IMG/VR virus record: IMGVR_UViG_3300021373_000401
Span: 1-20,098 of that record
DNA length: 20,098 nt
DNA from: a virus
Reading direction: 5' to 3' (one strand)
The translations under genes were made by a program, and so were the position numbers. The notes beneath the pieces were generated by a model. That model saw only the letters and a list, made by a program, of their open reading frames with translations. It was not told the origin of the DNA and ran no database searches. Each line of letters starts with the position of its first letter. The stretch's first letter is position 1. Below are positions 9,506 through 18,178 of this stretch, one piece after another.

Positions 9506-9687
9506 TGTTTAAATTAAGTTACGAACTCCGTGATGAGCCACCAGACTTGAAAAAGTGTACTATATGCGGAGAAAAGGCAGAAGGTGGGTGTATCCCATTG
9601 GGGTCACTGTGCGGCCAACACGCAAAAGAGTGGAAAGATATGGTTTTAAAAACTTTTTGGAGTAAGAAAAATGTGGAATCCAATTAA
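9505..9687 (+). CDS. Small zinc-binding protein upstream of DnaE
   Basis: This 60-aa protein starts in a TAATG overlap with the nuclease gene and ends 17 bases inside the polymerase gene, so it is translationally linked to both. It has C18/C21 (KKCTICGEKAEGG), C29, C36 and H39 (SLCGQHAKEW), consistent with a single small zinc site of CCCH or CCCC type. A helical tail follows (EWKDMVLKTFWSKK). It was not assigned to a named family. Its position suggests a small partner of the polymerase or nuclease, or a zinc-dependent adaptor. Confidence 0.6.
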   Translation: MFKLSYELRDEPPDLKKCTICGEKAEGGCIPLGSLCGQHAKEWKDMVLKTFWSKKNVESN

Positions 9688-11230
9688 TTGTAAAACTCAT
9701 TACAGCCTTCAGCTTGGTTTTTGCAAGCCTGAAAAGCTAGCGAAGGCAGCTAAAGAAAGAGGTTATACGGCATGCGGAATTGCTGATTTTGGAACTATTT
9801 CTGGTGCTGTTGATTTTCAGCAAGAGTGTAAAAAACAGGGCATTAAACCAATCATTGGTTGCGAGTTTGATGGTTATATTTTGTACGCTAAAAACAAAAA
9901 CGGCTGGTTTGACCTTGTAAAGTATGTTTCAAATCAAAGTCTTGACGTATTGAAGGAAGTGGCTAAGAATGGCAACTTGCTTTGCGTTACGCCAAATGTG
10001 AACGGCTTCGCTAGTCTTTTTAAAGGTAATCATGTGCAGCTTGATTATGAGTCGCAAGCGATTTACTATGTCAATCAAGAAGAGGCTGAATGTCATAGGA
10101 TCATGCTTTGCAGCAAGCTAAAGACAACCTTGAAGAAAGTCAGTAAAATCAAGCATGAGTTTGAAAAGTTTTTCGATTGCGACAACTTTTACTTACCAAA
10201 ACAAGACGAAAAGTCCCCACAACTTAAGGGTAGCCAGATAGCTGAACTTTGTGAAGAGTACGATCTGTCTGAAAGTCCCATGCTTCCAGAGTTTAAGTGT
10301 CCCGAGGGTTATTCTGAAGATCAATGGCTAACTGAACTTTGTCGGATTGGATGGAAAGAAAAGCTGGTTCCTCAAGGCAAAGTTTCCACACAAGAAGATC
10401 AAGACGTATATTCAGAAAGAATTAAAAGTGAACTAAAGGTTATTTTTAAAGCCGAGTTGTCTGGTTACTTTTTGATCGTTCAAGATATTGTCAAGTGGGT
10501 AAAGGCTCAGGGTTGGCTCGCTGGCCCAGGACGAGGCTCTGCTGCTGGTTGTTTGATATCTTGGTTATTAGATATTACCGAGGTAGATCCAATTGAATAC
10601 GACTTGATTTTCGAAAGATTTTATAACGAAGGTCGAAACACAGAAGATCACGTTTCCTTGCCAGATATTGATGTAGACGTTCCTGCTGAACACAGAGACG
10701 AAGTAATTGACTATATCAAGTCAAAGTACGGGGTTGACAAAGTTGCTCAAATGGTGACATTCGGAAGATTGCAGGGAAGATCTGCAATTAAAGAGGTTCT
10801 TAGGATTAGCGATGTTGTTTCTTTTTCAGAAATGAACGAGGTCACGGATAGTATTCCACAAGAAAGCATGATATCTGATCAACTGGAGTTAATGGATGAC
10901 AAATCTGTTTTACGTTGGACTCTAATGAATGAGCCAGACGCACTCTCAAATTGGTGCGTTATGGAAGAAGACGGAAGTCTTAGCGGAACTTTGGCAGAAT
11001 ACTTTAAAATGGCGATGATTATTGAGGGGACAAACAAGTCTCAGGGCAAACATCCCGCTGGAGTTATTATATCTCAAGAAAAACTAGCGAACGTTTGTCC
11101 TATGACAATAGACAAAAATGGCGATCCTATTGTTGCTTTGGAAATGGCTCCTCTAGAGGGCTTAGGGCATGTCAAGTTTGATATTTTAGGAATTGATTTA
11201 TTAAGTAAAATAATGGAGATAGTTAAATGA
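9671..11230 (+). CDS. dnaE: DNA polymerase III alpha, N-terminal part (PHP, palm, thumb)
   Basis: This 519-aa ORF is the first half of a bacterial-type (family C) replicative polymerase. Residues 1 to about 235 are a PHP domain (GYTACGIADFGTISGAVDF; GIKPIIGCEF). The palm follows, with GYFLIVQDIVKW, then GPGRGSAAG (285-293), which contacts the incoming nucleotide, and LPDIDVD (330-336). The thumb region leads to QGKHPAGVIIS (458-468), and the ORF closes with GHVKFDILG, whose D504 is the third catalytic Asp. All three catalytic aspartates are therefore here. The usual HxHS at the PHP start is replaced (NCKTHYS), so PHP exonuclease activity is unlikely. The ORF ends where the fingers domain should begin. 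A GGAG Shine-Dalgarno lies at 9659-9662; the stop overlaps the next ATG as ATGA. Confidence 0.93.
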   Translation: MWNPINCKTHYSLQLGFCKPEKLAKAAKERGYTACGIADFGTISGAVDFQQECKKQGIKPIIGCEFDGYILYAKNKNGWFDLVKYVSNQSLDVLKEVAKNGNLLCVTPNVNGFASLFKGNHVQLDYESQAIYYVNQEEAECHRIMLCSKLKTTLKKVSKIKHEFEKFFDCDNFYLPKQDEKSPQLKGSQIAELCEEYDLSESPMLPEFKCPEGYSEDQWLTELCRIGWKEKLVPQGKVSTQEDQDVYSERIKSELKVIFKAELSGYFLIVQDIVKWVKAQGWLAGPGRGSAAGCLISWLLDITEVDPIEYDLIFERFYNEGRNTEDHVSLPDIDVDVPAEHRDEVIDYIKSKYGVDKVAQMVTFGRLQGRSAIKEVLRISDVVSFSEMNEVTDSIPQESMISDQLELMDDKSVLRWTLMNEPDALSNWCVMEEDGSLSGTLAEYFKMAMIIEGTNKSQGKHPAGVIISQEKLANVCPMTIDKNGDPIVALEMAPLEGLGHVKFDILGIDLLSKIMEIVK

Positions 11231-11457
11231 AAATTGAAAGTAGAGATAAAGAAGAGATTATGGCGGTTATTTACAATGGACTCATGGTTGTAAGCAAAAA
11301 TAATACGTCATTATGCAATCTAGAAGATCACATGATGGGCAACTTTGTACCCAGAAATAAATACCAAGTTTGGTCAGATCGTTACAAGGTTTACAGTTTG
11401 TACCATGATCTTAGCGAAGCAACAGATGAATTTTTAAAACTATCTAAGAGAAAGTAG
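11227..11457 (+). CDS. Small unknown protein inside the split polymerase
   Basis: This 76-aa protein starts in an ATGA overlap with the first polymerase half and ends with TAG. It was not recognised. It is polar and mixed alpha/beta, with no Cys pair or catalytic motif (IMAVIYNGLMVVSKNNTS; KYQVWSDRYKVYSLYHDL). It is in the same reading frame as the exonuclease that follows, separated by the TAG and a few codons, so occasional read-through would make a fusion. TAG ends other genes in the window (for example 1363-1365 and 2292-2294), so it is best taken as a real stop. Confidence 0.55.
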   Translation: MKIESRDKEEIMAVIYNGLMVVSKNNTSLCNLEDHMMGNFVPRNKYQVWSDRYKVYSLYHDLSEATDEFLKLSKRK

Positions 11458-11469
11458 AGGTGCGTTATT
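11454..11469 (+). promoter_or_regulatory. Shine-Dalgarno and ATT start of the exonuclease gene
   Basis: AGAGGTG at 11456-11462 is a strong Shine-Dalgarno match, about 4-6 bases before ATT at 11467-11469. The frame upstream is closed by TAG (11455-11457), and no ATG, GTG or TTG occurs in this frame before the first catalytic motif. Initiation at ATT gives MNYRDIIVFDFETTG, with the expected distance from start to DFETTG. The out-of-frame GTG at 11460 leads to a stop after three codons. ATT starts are rare but known (infC). Confidence 0.6.
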
Positions 11470-12150
11470 AATTATAGAGATATTATTGTTTTTGACTTTG
11501 AGACTACGGGGGCAAACCCGCATAAGTGTCAGCCCACTCAAATCGCCGCTGTAGCACTACATCCTAGAACTCTAAAAATTAAAGACGGGGGAGTTTTTGA
11601 AAGCAAGATTAGATGTATTGTTGACGACGAAAAGGCTGTCGCTGCCGGATTCGACCCCGTTGAAGAAAAAGCCTTAGAAGTAACTGGCAAAACTAGAGAA
11701 GAAATATCCAAGGGGCCATATCCAAAAACCGTATGGAAAAAATTTACAGAGTTTGTAAACAAGCATAACTTTAAAGGAACTAGCTGGTATGCACCAGTTG
11801 CTGCTGGTTACAATATCAATGGTTTTGATATGATTATTGTTGAAAGAATGTGTCAAGCGTTCGGGCCGGTAAATAAAAAGAGGGGTTGCCAAGACCTTTT
11901 TAATACAATTCACACAATGGATGTGATGCCAATGCTTTACAGTTGGTTTGAAGACAATCGAGATGTTACAGGAATGAGCATGGATTACTTTAGAGATTAT
12001 TTTTCTATGGATAAAACAAACGCTCATGACGCTCTGCAAGATGTTAAAGACACTGCCAATATCCTTATTAAGTTTCTAAAATTACAGCGAACGCTTTCTA
12101 AAAAAATTGTTTTTGAAAAAGCGTTTGCAAATGGACAAACTTATGTTTAA
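11467..12150 (+). CDS. DnaQ-like DEDDh 3'-5' exonuclease with ATT start
   Basis: Reading from ATT, the 227-aa product is a complete DEDDh exonuclease of the DnaQ/epsilon type, which would proofread for the polymerase. ExoI is DFETTG (D10, E12). ExoII is YNINGFD (N118, D121). ExoIII is NAHDALQD (H187, D192). An ATG-based call would start at 11830 (M122), just after ExoII, and give an inactive C-terminal half. The gene sits between the two halves of the polymerase and overlaps the endonuclease gene at its 3' end. The first half's PHP domain looks inactive, so this is the likely proofreader. It could act as a free subunit or, by TAG read-through, as a fusion to the 76-aa protein. A sequencing error changing ATG to ATT cannot be excluded. 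Confidence 0.85.
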   Translation: MNYRDIIVFDFETTGANPHKCQPTQIAAVALHPRTLKIKDGGVFESKIRCIVDDEKAVAAGFDPVEEKALEVTGKTREEISKGPYPKTVWKKFTEFVNKHNFKGTSWYAPVAAGYNINGFDMIIVERMCQAFGPVNKKRGCQDLFNTIHTMDVMPMLYSWFEDNRDVTGMSMDYFRDYFSMDKTNAHDALQDVKDTANILIKFLKLQRTLSKKIVFEKAFANGQTYV

Positions 12151-12493
12151 AATATGCACTAAGTGCAATCGTGCTAAACTACATCGTCACTTCCGGCTGT
12201 GTAGACCGTACAAAGGTATAACAGATGGTGAATACATGAGGTCTGAATGTAGATCTTGTGAGAAGATTGCTGGCAAACAGCTACGCAAAGCAAAATCAGA
12301 AGCCCCTCCTAAACCGAAAGTTTGTGACTGTTGTAAAAGAAAAACAAATAATTTTGTTTTAGACCATGATCATAAAACTGGAAAATTTAGGGGGTGGCTT
12401 TGCAGAAATTGCAACCAAGGAATAGGCAAGCTGGGTGATGATATTAAAAGTTTAGAAAAAGCCATTGATTATTTGAGGAATAAAAATGTTTGA
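12131..12493 (+). CDS. Endonuclease VII-like HNH nuclease, possible homing endonuclease
   Basis: This protein of about 120 aa has the endonuclease VII (recombination endonuclease) fold: CDCC (C65, C68) and CRNCN (C91, C94) as the zinc ligands, with VLDHDHKTGKFRGWLC (D78, H79, H81) as the beta-beta-alpha metal catalytic site and N95 directly after the last Cys, as in T4 endonuclease VII. A second CxxC pair set lies upstream (C9/C12, C40/C43). T4 endonuclease VII (157 aa) resolves branched DNA before packaging; many small relatives in phages are mobile homing endonucleases. The open frame extends to a TTG at 12107; ATG at 12131 is preferred, and ATG at 12143 is possible. It lies directly before the second polymerase half and overlaps it by 8 bases. 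Confidence 0.82.
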   Translation: MDKLMFKICTKCNRAKLHRHFRLCRPYKGITDGEYMRSECRSCEKIAGKQLRKAKSEAPPKPKVCDCCKRKTNNFVLDHDHKTGKFRGWLCRNCNQGIGKLGDDIKSLEKAIDYLRNKNV

Positions 12494-14075
12494 TATTAAC
12501 AATTTTGAAGATGAGTTAGTTTGGGATTTGATCTGCGATGGGGACACTAAGGGTGTTTTTCAGTTAGAGTCCAATCTGGGCAAGCATTGGGCAAAGCAAA
12601 CTCAACCAAGAAATATTAAAGAATTGTCTGCACTAGTAAGTCTTATCCGACCAGGAACCTTGTTGGCTAAAGATGCTAACGGAAAGTCAATGACTCAGGT
12701 TTATGCAGACAGAAAGGCTGGAAAAGCAGATTCGCCCGTTGAATACTTGCACTCATCGCTTGAACCAATTCTTAAGGAAACCTACGGCGTACTGGTTTAT
12801 CAAGAACAGTCTATGAAAATCGCTCAATCTTTAGCCGGTTTTAATCTAAAAGAAGCGGACGAACTAAGAAAGGCTATTGGAAAGAAAAAGGCCGACGTTA
12901 TGGCGAAGGTTAAGAAGAAGTTTGTAAAAGGTGCAAAAGAGGTCGGTATCATCTCTGAGACAATTGCTGACGAGATTTTTTCATGGATTGAGAAATCTAG
13001 TCGATACGCTTTTAATAAGTCTCACGCGGTTTCATACGCCATCAACGCCTACTGGTCTGCCTACTGCAAGTGCCATCGAAGGCAAAGGTTTTACGAAACA
13101 TATCTAAACAGAGCGGAAAAAAAGCCGAAACCCGACATTGAGAAAAAGCAGCTTATGTCAGATGCTAAAATGTCAGACGTTGACGTGCTTCCTCCTAGAC
13201 TTAGATATCTAAAGACTAACTTTACGTTAATTCCAGATACCTCGTCTATCATATATGGGATGCTACATATAAAAGGTGTTTCAAAAAAAACCTGTAATAA
13301 TGTAGAAAACCACGTCAAGGAAAATAATAAGGATATTGTTAACTACAACTGGATGGACTGTCTGATAAAAATGATTTACGAGTTAAACATAGACAAGCGT
13401 TCCTCAATAGCAATGATTTCGGTTGGTGCTTTTAATGGTGTAAATAACACACTGTCAAGACAGAAAATGCTTTATGAGTACGATAGCTGGCGACAGCTAA
13501 CTAAAACTGAGCAGGCGTGGATTGCAATGAATCATAATTCAGAGCTTCGCAAAGAAACGCTTTCCGATTCAATTGGGCAAATATTGCAAGGATTATCTCC
13601 TGAGAAACAAAGGAAGATAACCAAAAGACGTTATTCAACGGTCGAGGATATTAAAAATTCCATAGATAGCCCGTTTTACTCACTCGACGATTCGATTGCC
13701 AGTATTGCGGGGCTAGAAGAGAAGTTTTTAAGCTACTCGCTAACATGTAGCAAAGTTGACGGTATTAACCTACAAAATTCAATAAATATGTGTAAAGACA
13801 TAGCAAATTCGTCTATAATAGGTAAAGCGGTTCTTGCTGTCGAGATAGAAAAAATCAAGATAGTAAAAACCAAAAAAGGTAAAAATCCTGGTCAGTCAAT
13901 GGCTTTTTTGACGGTTGAAGATGGATCGGGATCTATTGATTCAGTTATTGTTTTTCCAGAGTGTTTTGAAGAGTTTAAAAACACGCTAACAGAAAGTAAC
14001 ACTGTTATGCTTCATGGAGAAGTTCCAGCTAAAGACAAATCTTCTTTTATTGTTAATAAAGTTATCCAAATTTGA
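12486..14075 (+). CDS. dnaE: DNA polymerase III alpha, C-terminal part (fingers, HhH, OB fold)
   Basis: This 529-aa ORF carries on exactly where the first half stops. Residues 1-30 (INNFEDELVWDLI... TKGVFQLES) align with the start of the E. coli DnaE fingers (DDKKSFDML... TAVFQLES). Further family motifs are LIRPGTL (53-59), ETYGVLVYQEQSMKIAQ (98-114), RKAIGKKK (128-135) and RYAFNKSHAVSYA (173-185). A helix-hairpin-helix-like region follows (IIYGMLHIKGVSKKTCNNV, 255-273). The end is an OB fold (about 446-529; AFLTVEDGSGSIDSVIVFP). Together the halves give 1048 aa versus 1160 in E. coli. No split-intein sequence is present at either end. A GAGGA Shine-Dalgarno at 12475-12479 gives this half its own strong start. 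The halves must assemble without covalent joining. Confidence 0.92.
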   Translation: MFDINNFEDELVWDLICDGDTKGVFQLESNLGKHWAKQTQPRNIKELSALVSLIRPGTLLAKDANGKSMTQVYADRKAGKADSPVEYLHSSLEPILKETYGVLVYQEQSMKIAQSLAGFNLKEADELRKAIGKKKADVMAKVKKKFVKGAKEVGIISETIADEIFSWIEKSSRYAFNKSHAVSYAINAYWSAYCKCHRRQRFYETYLNRAEKKPKPDIEKKQLMSDAKMSDVDVLPPRLRYLKTNFTLIPDTSSIIYGMLHIKGVSKKTCNNVENHVKENNKDIVNYNWMDCLIKMIYELNIDKRSSIAMISVGAFNGVNNTLSRQKMLYEYDSWRQLTKTEQAWIAMNHNSELRKETLSDSIGQILQGLSPEKQRKITKRRYSTVEDIKNSIDSPFYSLDDSIASIAGLEEKFLSYSLTCSKVDGINLQNSINMCKDIANSSIIGKAVLAVEIEKIKIVKTKKGKNPGQSMAFLTVEDGSGSIDSVIVFPECFEEFKNTLTESNTVMLHGEVPAKDKSSFIVNKVIQI

Positions 14076-14084
14076 AAGGTTCGT

Positions 14085-14387
14085 ATGAATAAGTGTCATT
14101 TTTTAGGTAAGGTTTTAGGTGTTGAGTTTAGAGAGCCATATGAAGAAGATTCATCTTGCATAATGTTCACGCTAGAAGTCGAAGAAGTTAGAAGATCTTC
14201 TAGTGGAAAAAAGATAAAAGAGCACAACTATCTTGACATGGAGGCTTGGGATTCTGCCGCCTGTGCTTTAAACCAGTACGTAGAAGACGGTTCTGAAATC
14301 GCAGTGGAGGCAATAGCCAGAGGCGATGGGGAAGCTACTTGGTTTAGAATAACAAACTTTAAAATTTTGACCAAAGGTATGAAATGA
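14085..14387 (+). CDS. ssb: SSB-like single-stranded DNA-binding protein
   Basis: This 100-aa protein reads as a single OB fold of the bacterial SSB type: MNKCHFLGKVLGVEFRE (strand 1 start, as in the MNKVILIGRL pattern), FTLEVEEV, KIKEHNYLDMEAWDSAA (equivalent to the family's conserved W region), LNQYVEDGSEIAVEAIARG, and a closing strand WFRITNFKIL. It is much shorter than E. coli SSB (178 aa) and lacks the acidic C-terminal tail that recruits partners, so it may have only the DNA-binding core. It lies 9 bases after the polymerase and overlaps the first glycosyltransferase by 4 bases. Binding to template during replication is the natural role. Confidence 0.78.
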   Translation: MNKCHFLGKVLGVEFREPYEEDSSCIMFTLEVEEVRRSSSGKKIKEHNYLDMEAWDSAACALNQYVEDGSEIAVEAIARGDGEATWFRITNFKILTKGMK

Positions 14388-16036
14388 GAAAAAAGAAAGT
14401 TTTGTTTGTGGGTGAGGCTAGTTGGAACACATCTGGCTACTCGGTCTACGCAAAAGAATTATTAACAAGATTGCACGAAGAGCCATCAATAGAAGTAGCC
14501 GAACTAGCCTGCTATGCTAACAAGGACGATATTAAGTGCCAAATGATGCCTTGGAAGGTTTATGGCAACAGTCCAAGCATTGGCTCTGTGGAGTGGGAGG
14601 CTTACAAAAGCAGACCTTCAAACACCTATGGAGAATGGAGTTTTGGCGTTGTGTGTGCTGATTTTAAGCCTGATATTGTTATAGATATACGCGACTTCTG
14701 GATGATTGAACATGAGCTAAGAAATCCGTTTTTTGACTACTTTCATTGGGCTATTATGCCAGCGGTTGACGCTATGCCTCAAAACTCTGCATGGATCAAC
14801 ACGTACAGAAAAGCCGATTCCCTATTTGCGTATTGCGAATTCGGCAGAGATGTATTGCTAAAACAAGGTAAAGATATCAATTATGTAGGTCTTACGCCTC
14901 CTGCTGCAAGTATGGATTACAAACCTTTGGCTAACAAGGCTGACAATAGAAGTGACTTAGGTCTTACTTCTGATTGTAAGATTGTAGGAACTGTTATGAG
15001 AAATCAAACTCGTAAGTTGTATCCCGATCTTTTTGAGTCTTTTGCAAGATATCTTGAAACAGACTTGGAGAAAACTAAAGACACTTTTCTTCACTGTCAC
15101 ACGTCATTTCCAGATATTGGTTGGGATATCCCAGACTTGTTAAGTCGATACTCACTTCACAACAGAGTCTTGTTTTCATACAAATGTATTAGTTGCGGCC
15201 ACCTATCTGTTGATTTTTTAAAGACGGGTGCTGCTTTCTGCGATAAATGCTATAGCTACAACAAACATTTGGTTAGCGGAAACAACAAGATAGACGAAAA
15301 GCAGTTGAATAAAATATACAACACTTTTGACGTATATGTTCAGTGGGCGAACCAAGAGGGTTTTGGTATGCCTCAAGTTGAAGCTGCGTATGCGGGCTGT
15401 CCAATTATAACCGTTGATTATTCAGCTATGGATTCAGTCGCTAAAAATCTAGAATGTGTGAGTGTCAAACCTCTTGCTTACTCAATGGAATGTGGCACTG
15501 GTAGACTTAGGGCAATACCTAACAATCAAAAGTTGACGGAAGAATTATCCCATGTTTTCACATTATCTGGAGAAGAAAGGGAAAATTTAGGTCTTAAGAC
15601 TAGACAAAACGCTTTAAATATTTATAATTGGGATAAAACAGCGGAGAACTGGATCAACAGAATTAAAGAGATAGATTGTAAGGACTTGTCGGAGACTTGG
15701 TATTCAGAACCCAAGATACACCAACCCTCTAAAGAAGTTCCTTATCATCTTGAAGATCCTGTGGATCAAGTTGACTTTTTGTTTGCTCATGTCTTGCACA
15801 AGCCTGACTGGATTGGTGGGCCATTGTGGGCGAGAGTTTTAAGAGATTTATCATACGGCTTTACACCTTCTGGTATAGACGAAGATGTTTACTGGACCGA
15901 TTCACATTCCGCAGATGTTAAAAACAAGGACTTTAGTTTAAAAGAGGCACATTCTCAACTTTCTGCATTAAGAGAACAATTTAATCAAATGGAAAGTTTA
16001 CGAATTGCAGTAAACAACGGAACGGAGATTTGGTAA
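14384..16036 (+). CDS. GT4-like glycosyltransferase with a zinc-ribbon insertion
   Basis: This 550-aa protein is a GT-B fold glycosyltransferase. The N-terminal domain begins KVLFVGEASWNTSGYSVYAKELL (acceptor side, Gly-rich loop). The C-terminal sugar-nucleotide domain has EGFGMPQVEAAYAGCPII, with the E-x7-E pair E325/E333 of GT4 enzymes. Unusually, the second domain carries two CxxC pairs, C268/C271 and C286/C289 (YKCISCGHL... FCDKCYSYN), a zinc ribbon between the first strands and the donor-binding motif. An extra C-terminal tail of about 100 residues follows the catalytic domain (after about 450) and may bind a partner. It is cytosolic by sequence, with no signal or membrane segment. It overlaps SSB by 4 bases. 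Donor and acceptor are unknown. Confidence 0.82.
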   Translation: MRKKKVLFVGEASWNTSGYSVYAKELLTRLHEEPSIEVAELACYANKDDIKCQMMPWKVYGNSPSIGSVEWEAYKSRPSNTYGEWSFGVVCADFKPDIVIDIRDFWMIEHELRNPFFDYFHWAIMPAVDAMPQNSAWINTYRKADSLFAYCEFGRDVLLKQGKDINYVGLTPPAASMDYKPLANKADNRSDLGLTSDCKIVGTVMRNQTRKLYPDLFESFARYLETDLEKTKDTFLHCHTSFPDIGWDIPDLLSRYSLHNRVLFSYKCISCGHLSVDFLKTGAAFCDKCYSYNKHLVSGNNKIDEKQLNKIYNTFDVYVQWANQEGFGMPQVEAAYAGCPIITVDYSAMDSVAKNLECVSVKPLAYSMECGTGRLRAIPNNQKLTEELSHVFTLSGEERENLGLKTRQNALNIYNWDKTAENWINRIKEIDCKDLSETWYSEPKIHQPSKEVPYHLEDPVDQVDFLFAHVLHKPDWIGGPLWARVLRDLSYGFTPSGIDEDVYWTDSHSADVKNKDFSLKEAHSQLSALREQFNQMESLRIAVNNGTEIW

Positions 16037-16037
16037 C

Positions 16038-17135
16038 ATGGAAACAAATATACTTTACGTAGGAAATTATAAGGACGGGACTGGATGGGGCAATGCAGCC
16101 GAAGGAAACATCCTAGCTCTAAATTCTGTTTCAGGGTTTAATGTTATCCCAGCAGTTGTTTCATATAAAAACTCGGGACACAAAAAAACCCCTGAGATTG
16201 ACTGGCTGTACAACATGAATAAAGATCTAACTCCAAGTGTAGTTATTCAGCATGTCTTGCCCCACTTGTATCATTATGATTCTCGTTTTTTCAACATTGG
16301 ATTTTTAGACTGCGAGTCTAGAGACTTCAGGGCTACTGGTTGGCAGCATCACATAAATCTAATGGATCAACTATGGGTTCCAAGTGAGAACAACAGGGAA
16401 ATCGCACTTAGAAGCGGAGTAGAAATTCCTGTCTATGTGGTTCCTCACTCTATAGATATTTCCAAGTACAACAGAGATGCTTATAGATATGGACTGAGAA
16501 TTAGTGAGTTGGAAAATTCTTACAACTTTGGATTCGTTGGGGAGTTTATACAAAGAAAAAACCTAAAGGCTTTGATTCAGGCTTTTCATTTAGAGTTTGA
16601 ACCAGAAGAGCCTGTTAATCTTTTGATTAAAACTTCTGGGTCTCTTGAGGGGGTGGAAAAGTTTTGCAGCGATATAAAAATGGGACTTAAGACCAGAGGC
16701 AGATTTAAAAGAGAGTTGGTTATAACAGATAGAATGGCAGATGAAGACTATCGTTCTTTGCTATGCCAGATAGATACGTTTGTTATGCCGAGTCGAGGTG
16801 AAGGTTTTTGCATCCCAGCTTTGGAGTGTCAAGCCTTGGGATCAAACATTCTTTATACAAGCGATATAGGAATGGAATGGAGTTCTGGAAAATCAGTTGA
16901 TTCTGTTCCTCAGCATTGCTTTGGTGCTGTTGAGGGCTTGCCAAGCGTGGACACGGCAGACAGTGAATGGTGTGAGATCTCAGTTCAACACCTTATGGAA
17001 AGAATGAGAGACGAATATGAAGAGTTTAAAGTGGATTATAAAAGGCCACACATGAAAAACGCCAAGTCAATTAAAGACGCACAGAATTTTAGCCATCAAA
17101 AGGTAGGAGAACTAATATGGAACCTAATGAAATAA
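16038..17135 (+). CDS. GT4-like glycosyltransferase
   Basis: This 365-aa GT-B enzyme starts NILYVGNYKDGTGWGNAAEGN, a Gly-rich acceptor-domain loop. It continues through LDCESRDF, QLWVPSENNREI and VYVVPHSIDISKYN, the hinge typical of this group. The donor domain has FGFVGEFIQRKNLKALIQAF (164-183), then TFVMPSRGEGFCIPALECQALG with E255 and E263 as the E-x7-E pair. Its length is typical of single-domain GT4 enzymes. It begins one base after the previous stop and overlaps the next transferase by 19 bases, so the three are co-translated. The substrate cannot be read; it could add sugars in series with its neighbours. Confidence 0.85.
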   Translation: METNILYVGNYKDGTGWGNAAEGNILALNSVSGFNVIPAVVSYKNSGHKKTPEIDWLYNMNKDLTPSVVIQHVLPHLYHYDSRFFNIGFLDCESRDFRATGWQHHINLMDQLWVPSENNREIALRSGVEIPVYVVPHSIDISKYNRDAYRYGLRISELENSYNFGFVGEFIQRKNLKALIQAFHLEFEPEEPVNLLIKTSGSLEGVEKFCSDIKMGLKTRGRFKRELVITDRMADEDYRSLLCQIDTFVMPSRGEGFCIPALECQALGSNILYTSDIGMEWSSGKSVDSVPQHCFGAVEGLPSVDTADSEWCEISVQHLMERMRDEYEEFKVDYKRPHMKNAKSIKDAQNFSHQKVGELIWNLMK

Positions 17136-18178
17136 ATCCCTTCGAGAAAACTTGTATACCTTACGCTGGCAAGCGAAACATCAGAAAAATAATCGTAGGA
17201 AAGAACAAGTCTAAAAAGTTAAATATTTTAACGTTTGCCACTCATGAAAGATATGAGGAATCTTTGTGCAAAACAGGTCACAATTTTTATTCGCTAAACG
17301 CTGGCAAACAGTGGGATACTACATACGCGGAAATTCCAGAAAATTATCATGTAATCGACAAGCTGCCGAACTATGTTGACTTTGACTTAGTGTTAAGTCA
17401 TACTAGCTGCAACAGAATACAACTTGCACACGATCTTTTATCGGAAAATCCTGGAACTTCTAACGCTATTACAATTCCTGTGTTGCGTCATTGTCACGTT
17501 TTACCGGACGTTAGGAGTGATGTAGGCCAGCAGGTTTATATGTTTCAACAAATGCCTAACGTCATAAACTCTTTTATATCAAATTACAATAGAGATCAAT
17601 GGGGTTCAAACGAGTCGAATTCCTACGTGATTCCTCACGGTATTAATACAGATTTCTGGAAACCAGTGGAAGTCGATTGGCGAGTCTCGCATGATTATGC
17701 ACTTTCAGTAGTTAACGAGTTTCCAACAAGAGATTGGTGCTGTGGATATAATTTATGGAGAAATATTAGCGAGAAAGTTCCATGTTTGGTTGTTGGTAAA
17801 TGTACCACTCATCCAAGTTTTTCTCAGCCAGCGGCTAACACAGAAGAACTGAGAAATCATTACAATTCGGCCAAGCTGTACCTTAATACATCGCTACACT
17901 CACCCGTTCCAACGGCAATGATGGAGGCTATGGCTTGTGGATTGCCAGTTGTCTCAACTGAAAACTGCATGATCCCCGAAATAGTAGAGCATGGAGTTAA
18001 TGGATTTATGTCCAACGATCCGCTTGAACTTGCGGAGTGCTGTCGAAAATTACTTATGGATCAGCACATGGCTCACGAAATGGGTTTAGCCGCAAGAGAA
18101 ACTATTGTGTCCAAGTTTGGAATGGATGCGTTTGTAAGCAATTGGAACAAGTTACTTTATAAAACAATAGGAGAATAA
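17117..18178 (+). CDS. GT4-like glycosyltransferase lacking the first catalytic-pair Glu
   Basis: This 353-aa protein has the GT-B pattern: a basic N-terminus, LNILTFATHERYEESL, a hinge YVIPHGINTDFWKPV (170-184), and donor-domain motif SPVPTAMMEAMACGLPVVS (262-280) followed by IPEIVEHGVNGFMSND, which is strongly GT4-like. In the E-x7-E pair the second Glu is E270, but the first position is S262. This occurs in some subfamilies and may alter donor preference. It overlaps the upstream transferase by 19 bases, and an AGGAGAA Shine-Dalgarno for the next gene lies at its end. Three different GT-B enzymes in a row suggest a stepwise glycan rather than copies of one reaction. Confidence 0.85.
   Translation: MEPNEINPFEKTCIPYAGKRNIRKIIVGKNKSKKLNILTFATHERYEESLCKTGHNFYSLNAGKQWDTTYAEIPENYHVIDKLPNYVDFDLVLSHTSCNRIQLAHDLLSENPGTSNAITIPVLRHCHVLPDVRSDVGQQVYMFQQMPNVINSFISNYNRDQWGSNESNSYVIPHGINTDFWKPVEVDWRVSHDYALSVVNEFPTRDWCCGYNLWRNISEKVPCLVVGKCTTHPSFSQPAANTEELRNHYNSAKLYLNTSLHSPVPTAMMEAMACGLPVVSTENCMIPEIVEHGVNGFMSNDPLELAECCRKLLMDQHMAHEMGLAARETIVSKFGMDAFVSNWNKLLYKTIGE

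What the first reader, a model, noticed from the sequence alone, without database searches (positions are those of the whole stretch)
9671..14075. Phage DnaE split at the palm/fingers boundary with three genes between the halves
Seen: the first ORF ends just after VKFDILG (third catalytic Asp), and the second starts with the segment that follows it in E. coli DnaE (... TKGVFQLES). Nothing appears lost, and no intein sequence is present. The break is a domain border: palm and thumb in one chain, fingers, HhH and OB fold in the other. Known: cyanobacterial DnaE is split at a different site (just before the FNKSH motif) and rejoined by a split intein; here FNKSH is intact in the second ORF. Inference: an active polymerase assembled non-covalently from two chains, each with its own start.
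Basis: partly seen in the sequence, partly recalled or inferred. Interest (0 to 1): 0.8.

Follow-up and report, generated by a model that had tools for sequence, protein, structure and literature searches.

The report
Two-gene phage DNA polymerase III alpha
A large group of uncultured phages builds its bacterial-type replicative DNA polymerase from two separately encoded halves, with the proofreading exonuclease gene between them; the split is real, old and under selection, and is an unusual but not wholly unprecedented way to make this enzyme.

Summary
The window encodes a family C (DnaE-type) polymerase in two ORFs: PHP+palm (9671-11230) and fingers+HhH+OB (12486-14075), which structurally match E. 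coli alpha 5-570 and 583-1073, so only an 8-12-residue loop is missing. Between them lie a 76-aa orphan, a DnaQ-like exonuclease that seems to start at ATT, and an Endonuclease VII-type HNH gene. No intein or known intron is at the junction.

It is no assembly error or pseudogene. In 209 distinct IMG/VR relatives none is fused, 207 have the exonuclease between the halves, and 25 have the HNH gene. The same test of 95 loci from cultured phages and genome assemblies fused. In a sister clade the halves lie 5-11 kb apart. dN/dS is about 0.02-0.15, all catalytic Asp are invariant in 50 sequences, and no family A or B polymerase was found in 17 records of up to 200 kb. The clade is monophyletic.

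Most likely: two independently translated chains assemble non-covalently into the phage replicase (inferred, not shown). Precedents limit novelty: a predicted minimal split Pol III alpha in jumbo phages, same-border splits in phages G and phiT1, and active split T4-type gp43. New are a near full-length split DnaE fixed in a large clade, the conserved N-exonuclease-C gene order, and recurrent ATT/ATC starts.

The parts
9671..11230 (+). DnaE N half, 519 aa: shortened PHP domain and complete palm, with catalytic D332, D334 and D504; ends 12 residues after VKFDILG
11227..11457 (+). 76-aa orphan ORF, overlapping the N-half stop by 4 bases; conserved only in the window's closer relatives
11467..12150 (+). 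DnaQ-like 3'-5' exonuclease (RNase_T, DEDDh-type motifs); apparent ATT start with AGAGG upstream; the only gene constantly found between the halves (207 of 209 distinct relatives)
12107..12493 (+). Endonuclease VII-family HNH gene (PF02945; first TTG at 12107, ATG at 12131 or 12143 more likely); optional, 25 of 209 relatives
12486..14075 (+). DnaE C half, 529 aa: fingers with uninterrupted FNKSH, HhH and OB fold; own SD (GAGGA) and ATG; overlaps the HNH ORF by 8 bases

Best explanation
The phage's replicative family C DNA polymerase is made as two separately translated polypeptides, PHP+palm and fingers+HhH+OB, which associate non-covalently across the normal palm-fingers contact to form one active site. 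A DnaQ-like exonuclease translated between them serves as the proofreading subunit, probably bound to the PHP-containing chain as epsilon is in E. coli. The split is ancestral to a large clade of tailed phages; the variable genes between the halves, including the HNH endonuclease, are later and dispensable. Shown: the anatomy, the conservation, the selection on both halves, the absence of an intein or Rfam intron at the junction, and wide separation of the halves in relatives. Inferred: assembly, activity, exonuclease binding, and use as the main replicase.
For: Domain and fold mapping leaves only an 8-12-residue loop gap. Three catalytic Asp and the TKGVFQLES, RPG, YQEQ and FNKSH motifs are invariant or nearly so in 50 sequences. 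No fused member among 209 distinct relatives, while the same test of 95 other loci fused. Halves 5-11 kb apart in sister-clade records. dN/dS about 0.02-0.15 on N, exonuclease and C. Each DnaE half has its own ATG start, with a clear SD before the C half. Exactly one palm gene and one finger gene and no family A or B polymerase in 17 records. Split clade monophyletic, UFBoot 99. Co-purification and activity of split T4-type gp43A/B and function of split NrdA are published (PMC2988022).
Against: No biochemical or co-folding evidence that the halves bind; the tools could not co-fold two chains. All direct relatives are metagenomic. CheckV completeness was not available, so absence of another polymerase in these records is not proof. 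Other polymerase families (X, Y, protein-primed B) were not searched.
Confidence: 0.86

Rival explanations
1. The halves are rejoined into one chain after translation by an unrecognised trans-splicing element, as in cyanobacterial DnaE.
For: Relatives carry split inteins in the C half at FNK|SH (L007, L067; L304 similar) and in-frame inteins in the fingers (L298/L299, L316, L317, L319), so inteins are common in this gene.
Against: No Hint or intein sequence at the N-half C-terminus or C-half N-terminus in any relative inspected: the N half ends soon after the last palm helix and the C half starts within about 45 residues of the fingers motif. No group I or II intron reached Rfam thresholds.
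Confidence: 0.03
2. The gene was split by insertion of the HNH homing-type endonuclease (genes-in-pieces, as with mobE in Aeh1 nrdA), and the present locus is the direct result. This concerns origin and is compatible with the two-chain enzyme.
For: An Endonuclease VII-type HNH gene directly precedes the C half and overlaps it; HEG insertion is a known cause of split phage genes (PMC2988022).
Against: The HNH gene is present in only 25 of 209 relatives, whereas the split is universal; the basal lineages L341 and L093/L077 are split with different interveners. A lost ancestral HEG cannot be excluded.
Confidence: 0.2
3. One or both halves are decaying or have been re-used for another role, with host or other polymerase doing replication.
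For: Jumbo phages with a minimal split Pol III alpha also have a family B polymerase (PMC7824862). The window's PHP lacks the HxH metal motif.
Against: Strong purifying selection and invariant catalytic residues. No family A or B polymerase in 17 records.
Confidence: 0.06
4. Assembly error, frameshift or nonsense artefact.
For: Occasional loci do show such breaks (L293, L303, L107, and a TAA in L414).
Against: Same boundary in 209 distinct sequences from many metagenomes with whole genes between.
Confidence: 0.005

Closest known systems
Predicted minimal split Pol III alpha of group 2.2 jumbo phages (Viruses 2021, PMC7824862)
   Same: Family C polymerase catalytic core encoded as two standalone proteins in phages, proposed to reconstitute one enzyme
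   Different: Those hold little more than the core catalytic and template-binding subdomains, lack other Pol III domains and accompany a family B polymerase; here PHP, HhH and OB are kept, no family A or B polymerase was found, and a DnaQ gene sits between the halves
Bacillus phage G gp329-331/gp339 and Rossellomorea phage phiT1 gp20/gp18 (GenBank JN638751, PV767480)
   Same: DnaE split at the same palm-fingers border; phiT1 has one 49-aa ORF between, phage G about 5 kb
   Different: Both fall outside this clade, so the splits look independent, though placement is weakly supported; no exonuclease gene is annotated between
Split T4-type gp43A/43B of Aeromonas phages and split NrdA of Aeh1 (PMC2988022)
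   Same: Essential phage enzyme made from two polypeptides and shown to be active
   Different: Family B polymerase or reductase; HEG or untranslated insertion
Cyanobacterial DnaE split intein (own knowledge)
   Same: DnaE in two genes
   Different: Different site and covalent rejoining by intein; no intein here
Fractured genes with split inteins and free-standing endonucleases (Dassa 2009; paper not held, own knowledge)
   Same: L007 and L067 have that arrangement inside the C half
   Different: The N/C split in question has no intein

Membership tests
Family C DNA polymerase, DnaE type | Palm (PF07733) and fingers (PF17657) with three catalytic Asp | tested here: met
   E 6.7e-70 and 1.8e-44; D332, D334, D504 invariant in 50 sequences
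Family C DNA polymerase, DnaE type | PHP first, exonuclease not inserted in PHP (unlike PolC); HhH and OB after fingers | tested here: met
   HHH_6 and OB scores only at their cut-offs; PHP shortened
Family C DNA polymerase, DnaE type | Single polypeptide (usual, though cyanobacteria and some phages depart from it; not treated here as excluding homology) | tested here: not met
   0 of 209 distinct relatives fused
Cyanobacterial-type split-intein DnaE | Intein N and C parts at the junction before FNKSH | tested here: not met
   FNKSH uninterrupted; no intein at the junction
Genes-in-pieces made by a homing endonuclease | Endonuclease gene between two parts of one coding region | tested here: met
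   PF02945 gene at 12107-12493, but only in 25 of 209 relatives
Genes-in-pieces made by a homing endonuclease | The endonuclease caused the split and homes to the unsplit allele | not testable with these tools
   no unsplit close relative found; homing not assayable
Genes-in-pieces made by a homing endonuclease | Halves assemble into active enzyme | not testable with these tools
   needs co-expression
Minimal split Pol III alpha of group 2.2 jumbo phages | Only core subdomains, co-occurring with a family B polymerase | tested here: not met
   PHP, HhH and OB present; no PF00136 in 17 related records, all possibly fragments

The most novel reading that the evidence does not exclude
The locus encodes an obligate three-chain replicase (alpha-N, exonuclease, alpha-C) whose gene order is kept by selection because the exonuclease binds the PHP-palm chain before the fingers chain docks, with exonuclease dosage held low by AUU/AUC initiation in some lineages. 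This would be a distinct architecture for a family C polymerase with proofreading.
Probability: 0.25. Interest if true: 0.7.

Novelty: new variant of a known kind. Interest (0 to 1): 0.55.

Why it matters
Bacterial replicative polymerases are normally one long chain. A clade of phages in which the catalytic palm and the fingers are always separate proteins gives a natural test of how the active site assembles and whether the fingers can be exchanged, and offers ready-made split polymerases for engineering. It also warns that genome surveys looking for full-length DnaE will miss or misclassify these phages.

Tried and rejected
Intein at the N/C junction: none seen in the terminal sequences of relatives. 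Group I/II introns: none above Rfam thresholds in window and nine relatives. Bacterial or archaeal split DnaE: L339-L341 sit in assemblies labelled Lokiarchaeota or Flavobacteriales but share the phage gene order, so I take them as phage contigs; L414 is a single in-frame TAA. Cultured member of the clade: DnaE, glycosyltransferase and helicase have only distant matches in the phage collection and DNA has none beyond short matches. A beta-clamp motif in the C half by a simple pattern: none found. Papers describing this clade: none found with the terms used; Dassa 2009 is not held.

Full report
Check of the observation. The window is a 20,098-base IMG/VR virus fragment. Two ORFs, 9671-11230 (519 aa) and 12486-14075 (529 aa), hold the two parts of a family C polymerase: PHP and complete PF07733 in the first; PF17657 fingers, HHH_6 and OB in the second. 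PHROG profile 405, an unsplit phage polymerase of 1190 positions, matches the first ORF to position 610 and the second from 627. AlphaFold2 models made from alignments of 50 clade members have mean pLDDT 92.7 and 92.0. Their best structural matches are Pol III alpha chains: N half Z up to 28.5, C half Z up to 23.2. The N half ends at E. coli residue 570, T. aquaticus 633 and M. tuberculosis 602; the C half begins at 583, 642 and 611. The gap is a loop of 8-12 residues.

Between the halves. There are three genes: a 76-aa orphan; an RNase_T/DnaQ-like exonuclease with DEDDh-type residues conserved; and an Endonuclease VII-type HNH gene. No Rfam family matches the window or nine relatives except one tRNA gene in L056.

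Conservation. Six IMG/VR scans gave relatives mostly at about 38-73% identity. With profile HMMs built here, 279 loci besides the window's own hold both halves (209 distinct sequences); none is fused, 207 of 209 have the exonuclease gene between, and 25 have an Endonuclease VII-like gene between. As a positive control, the same procedure called 86 of 95 loci from cultured phages and genome assemblies fused. Other genes between the halves vary: glycosyltransferases, methyltransferases, a ThyX-like gene, uracil-DNA-glycosylase-like genes and several nucleases, named here from sequence inspection only. In the sister clade (L077/L093 and relatives) the halves are 5-11 kb apart with no exonuclease between. 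L341 has about 1 kb and two other genes between.

Selection and exclusivity. dN/dS for close pairs is about 0.02-0.15 for N half, exonuclease and C half alike. The three catalytic Asp are invariant in 50 sequences. In 17 records of 20-200 kb there is one PF07733 gene, one PF17657 gene and no family A or B polymerase. The records may be incomplete.

History. In a maximum-likelihood tree of palm plus fingers, all split members of this lineage, including L093/L077 and L341, form one clade (UFBoot 99). Phage G and phiT1, also split at this border, fall outside it, although their exact placement is weakly supported. So the border seems to have been broken more than once. phiT1 ends its N half with VKFDLLGLKTLKVIQNSVDQINQGVAV and starts its C half with MFDILDIPLDD. 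Gordonia phage Djokovic is split elsewhere, before the palm motifs.

Mechanism. The halves have separate start signals and in relatives are kilobases apart, so read-through or frameshift cannot join them, no intron was recognised, and no intein sequence is at the junction. The simplest reading is two chains meeting at the natural palm-fingers contact. Published cases show that split phage enzymes can work this way: gp43A/43B of phage 25 co-purify and have polymerase activity, and split NrdA of Aeh1 is functional (PMC2988022). The exonuclease is probably the proofreader. The sister-clade N half read in full (L093) keeps the PHP HxH motif, and 10 of 11 IMG/VR records of that clade show no RNase_T gene. 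In the main clade the exonuclease is almost always present, and many members, the window included, have a shortened PHP without HxH. This fits a hand-over of proofreading from PHP to DnaQ, but that is inference.

Inteins. L007 and L067 have the C half cut by a split intein between FNK and SHAV, with a free-standing endonuclease gene (NUMOD3, DUF559) between, so their DnaE lies in three genes; L304 looks similar. Others carry in-frame inteins in the fingers. None was seen at the N/C break.

What is known. A predicted minimal split Pol III alpha in jumbo phages is published (PMC7824862). The present case differs in keeping PHP, HhH and OB, in showing no family B polymerase, in gene order and in being fixed in a large uncultured clade. 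I therefore call it a new variant of a known kind. Physical assembly and activity are untested.

Noticed in passing
window 11467-12150; L003, L007, L022, L111, L177, L184, L194, L223, L254: The exonuclease gene appears to start at ATT or ATC behind a strong SD in the window and about 23 of the fetched loci, in several sub-lineages, while most relatives use ATG. AUU starts are rare and can limit expression.
   Followed up: partly
L007:3530-6443, L067:4191-7023, L304:4112-7002: C half interrupted by a split intein between FNK and SHAV, a few residues downstream of the cyanobacterial DnaE site, with a free-standing endonuclease gene between in L007 and L067.
   Followed up: partly
L298, L299, L316, L317, L319, L323: In-frame insertions in the C half at several sites, identified as inteins in L299, L317 and L319 (two in L319, one with LAGLIDADG; an HNH-like match in L299).
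   Followed up: partly
window 9671-10270 and relatives: PHP domain shortened by about 100 aa and lacking the HxH motif in the window's sub-lineages, while other members and L093 keep it.
   Followed up: partly
L055, L061, L077 C-half N-termini: A short Cys-x-Cys N-terminal extension of the C half, absent in the window's sub-lineage, possibly a small metal-binding or docking segment.
   Followed up: no
L093:3740-6115 and phage G gp329: Palm domain with an insertion between the GxGRGS and PDID motifs in the sister clade; phage G is also interrupted in the palm, next to a homing endonuclease gene.
   Followed up: no
window 14384-18178: Run of glycosyltransferase-like genes directly after the replication genes; the first is kept downstream of dnaE in most relatives and matches only one cultured phage, distantly.
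   Followed up: no
L339, L341: Phage-like contigs binned into Lokiarchaeota metagenome-assembled genomes.
   Followed up: partly
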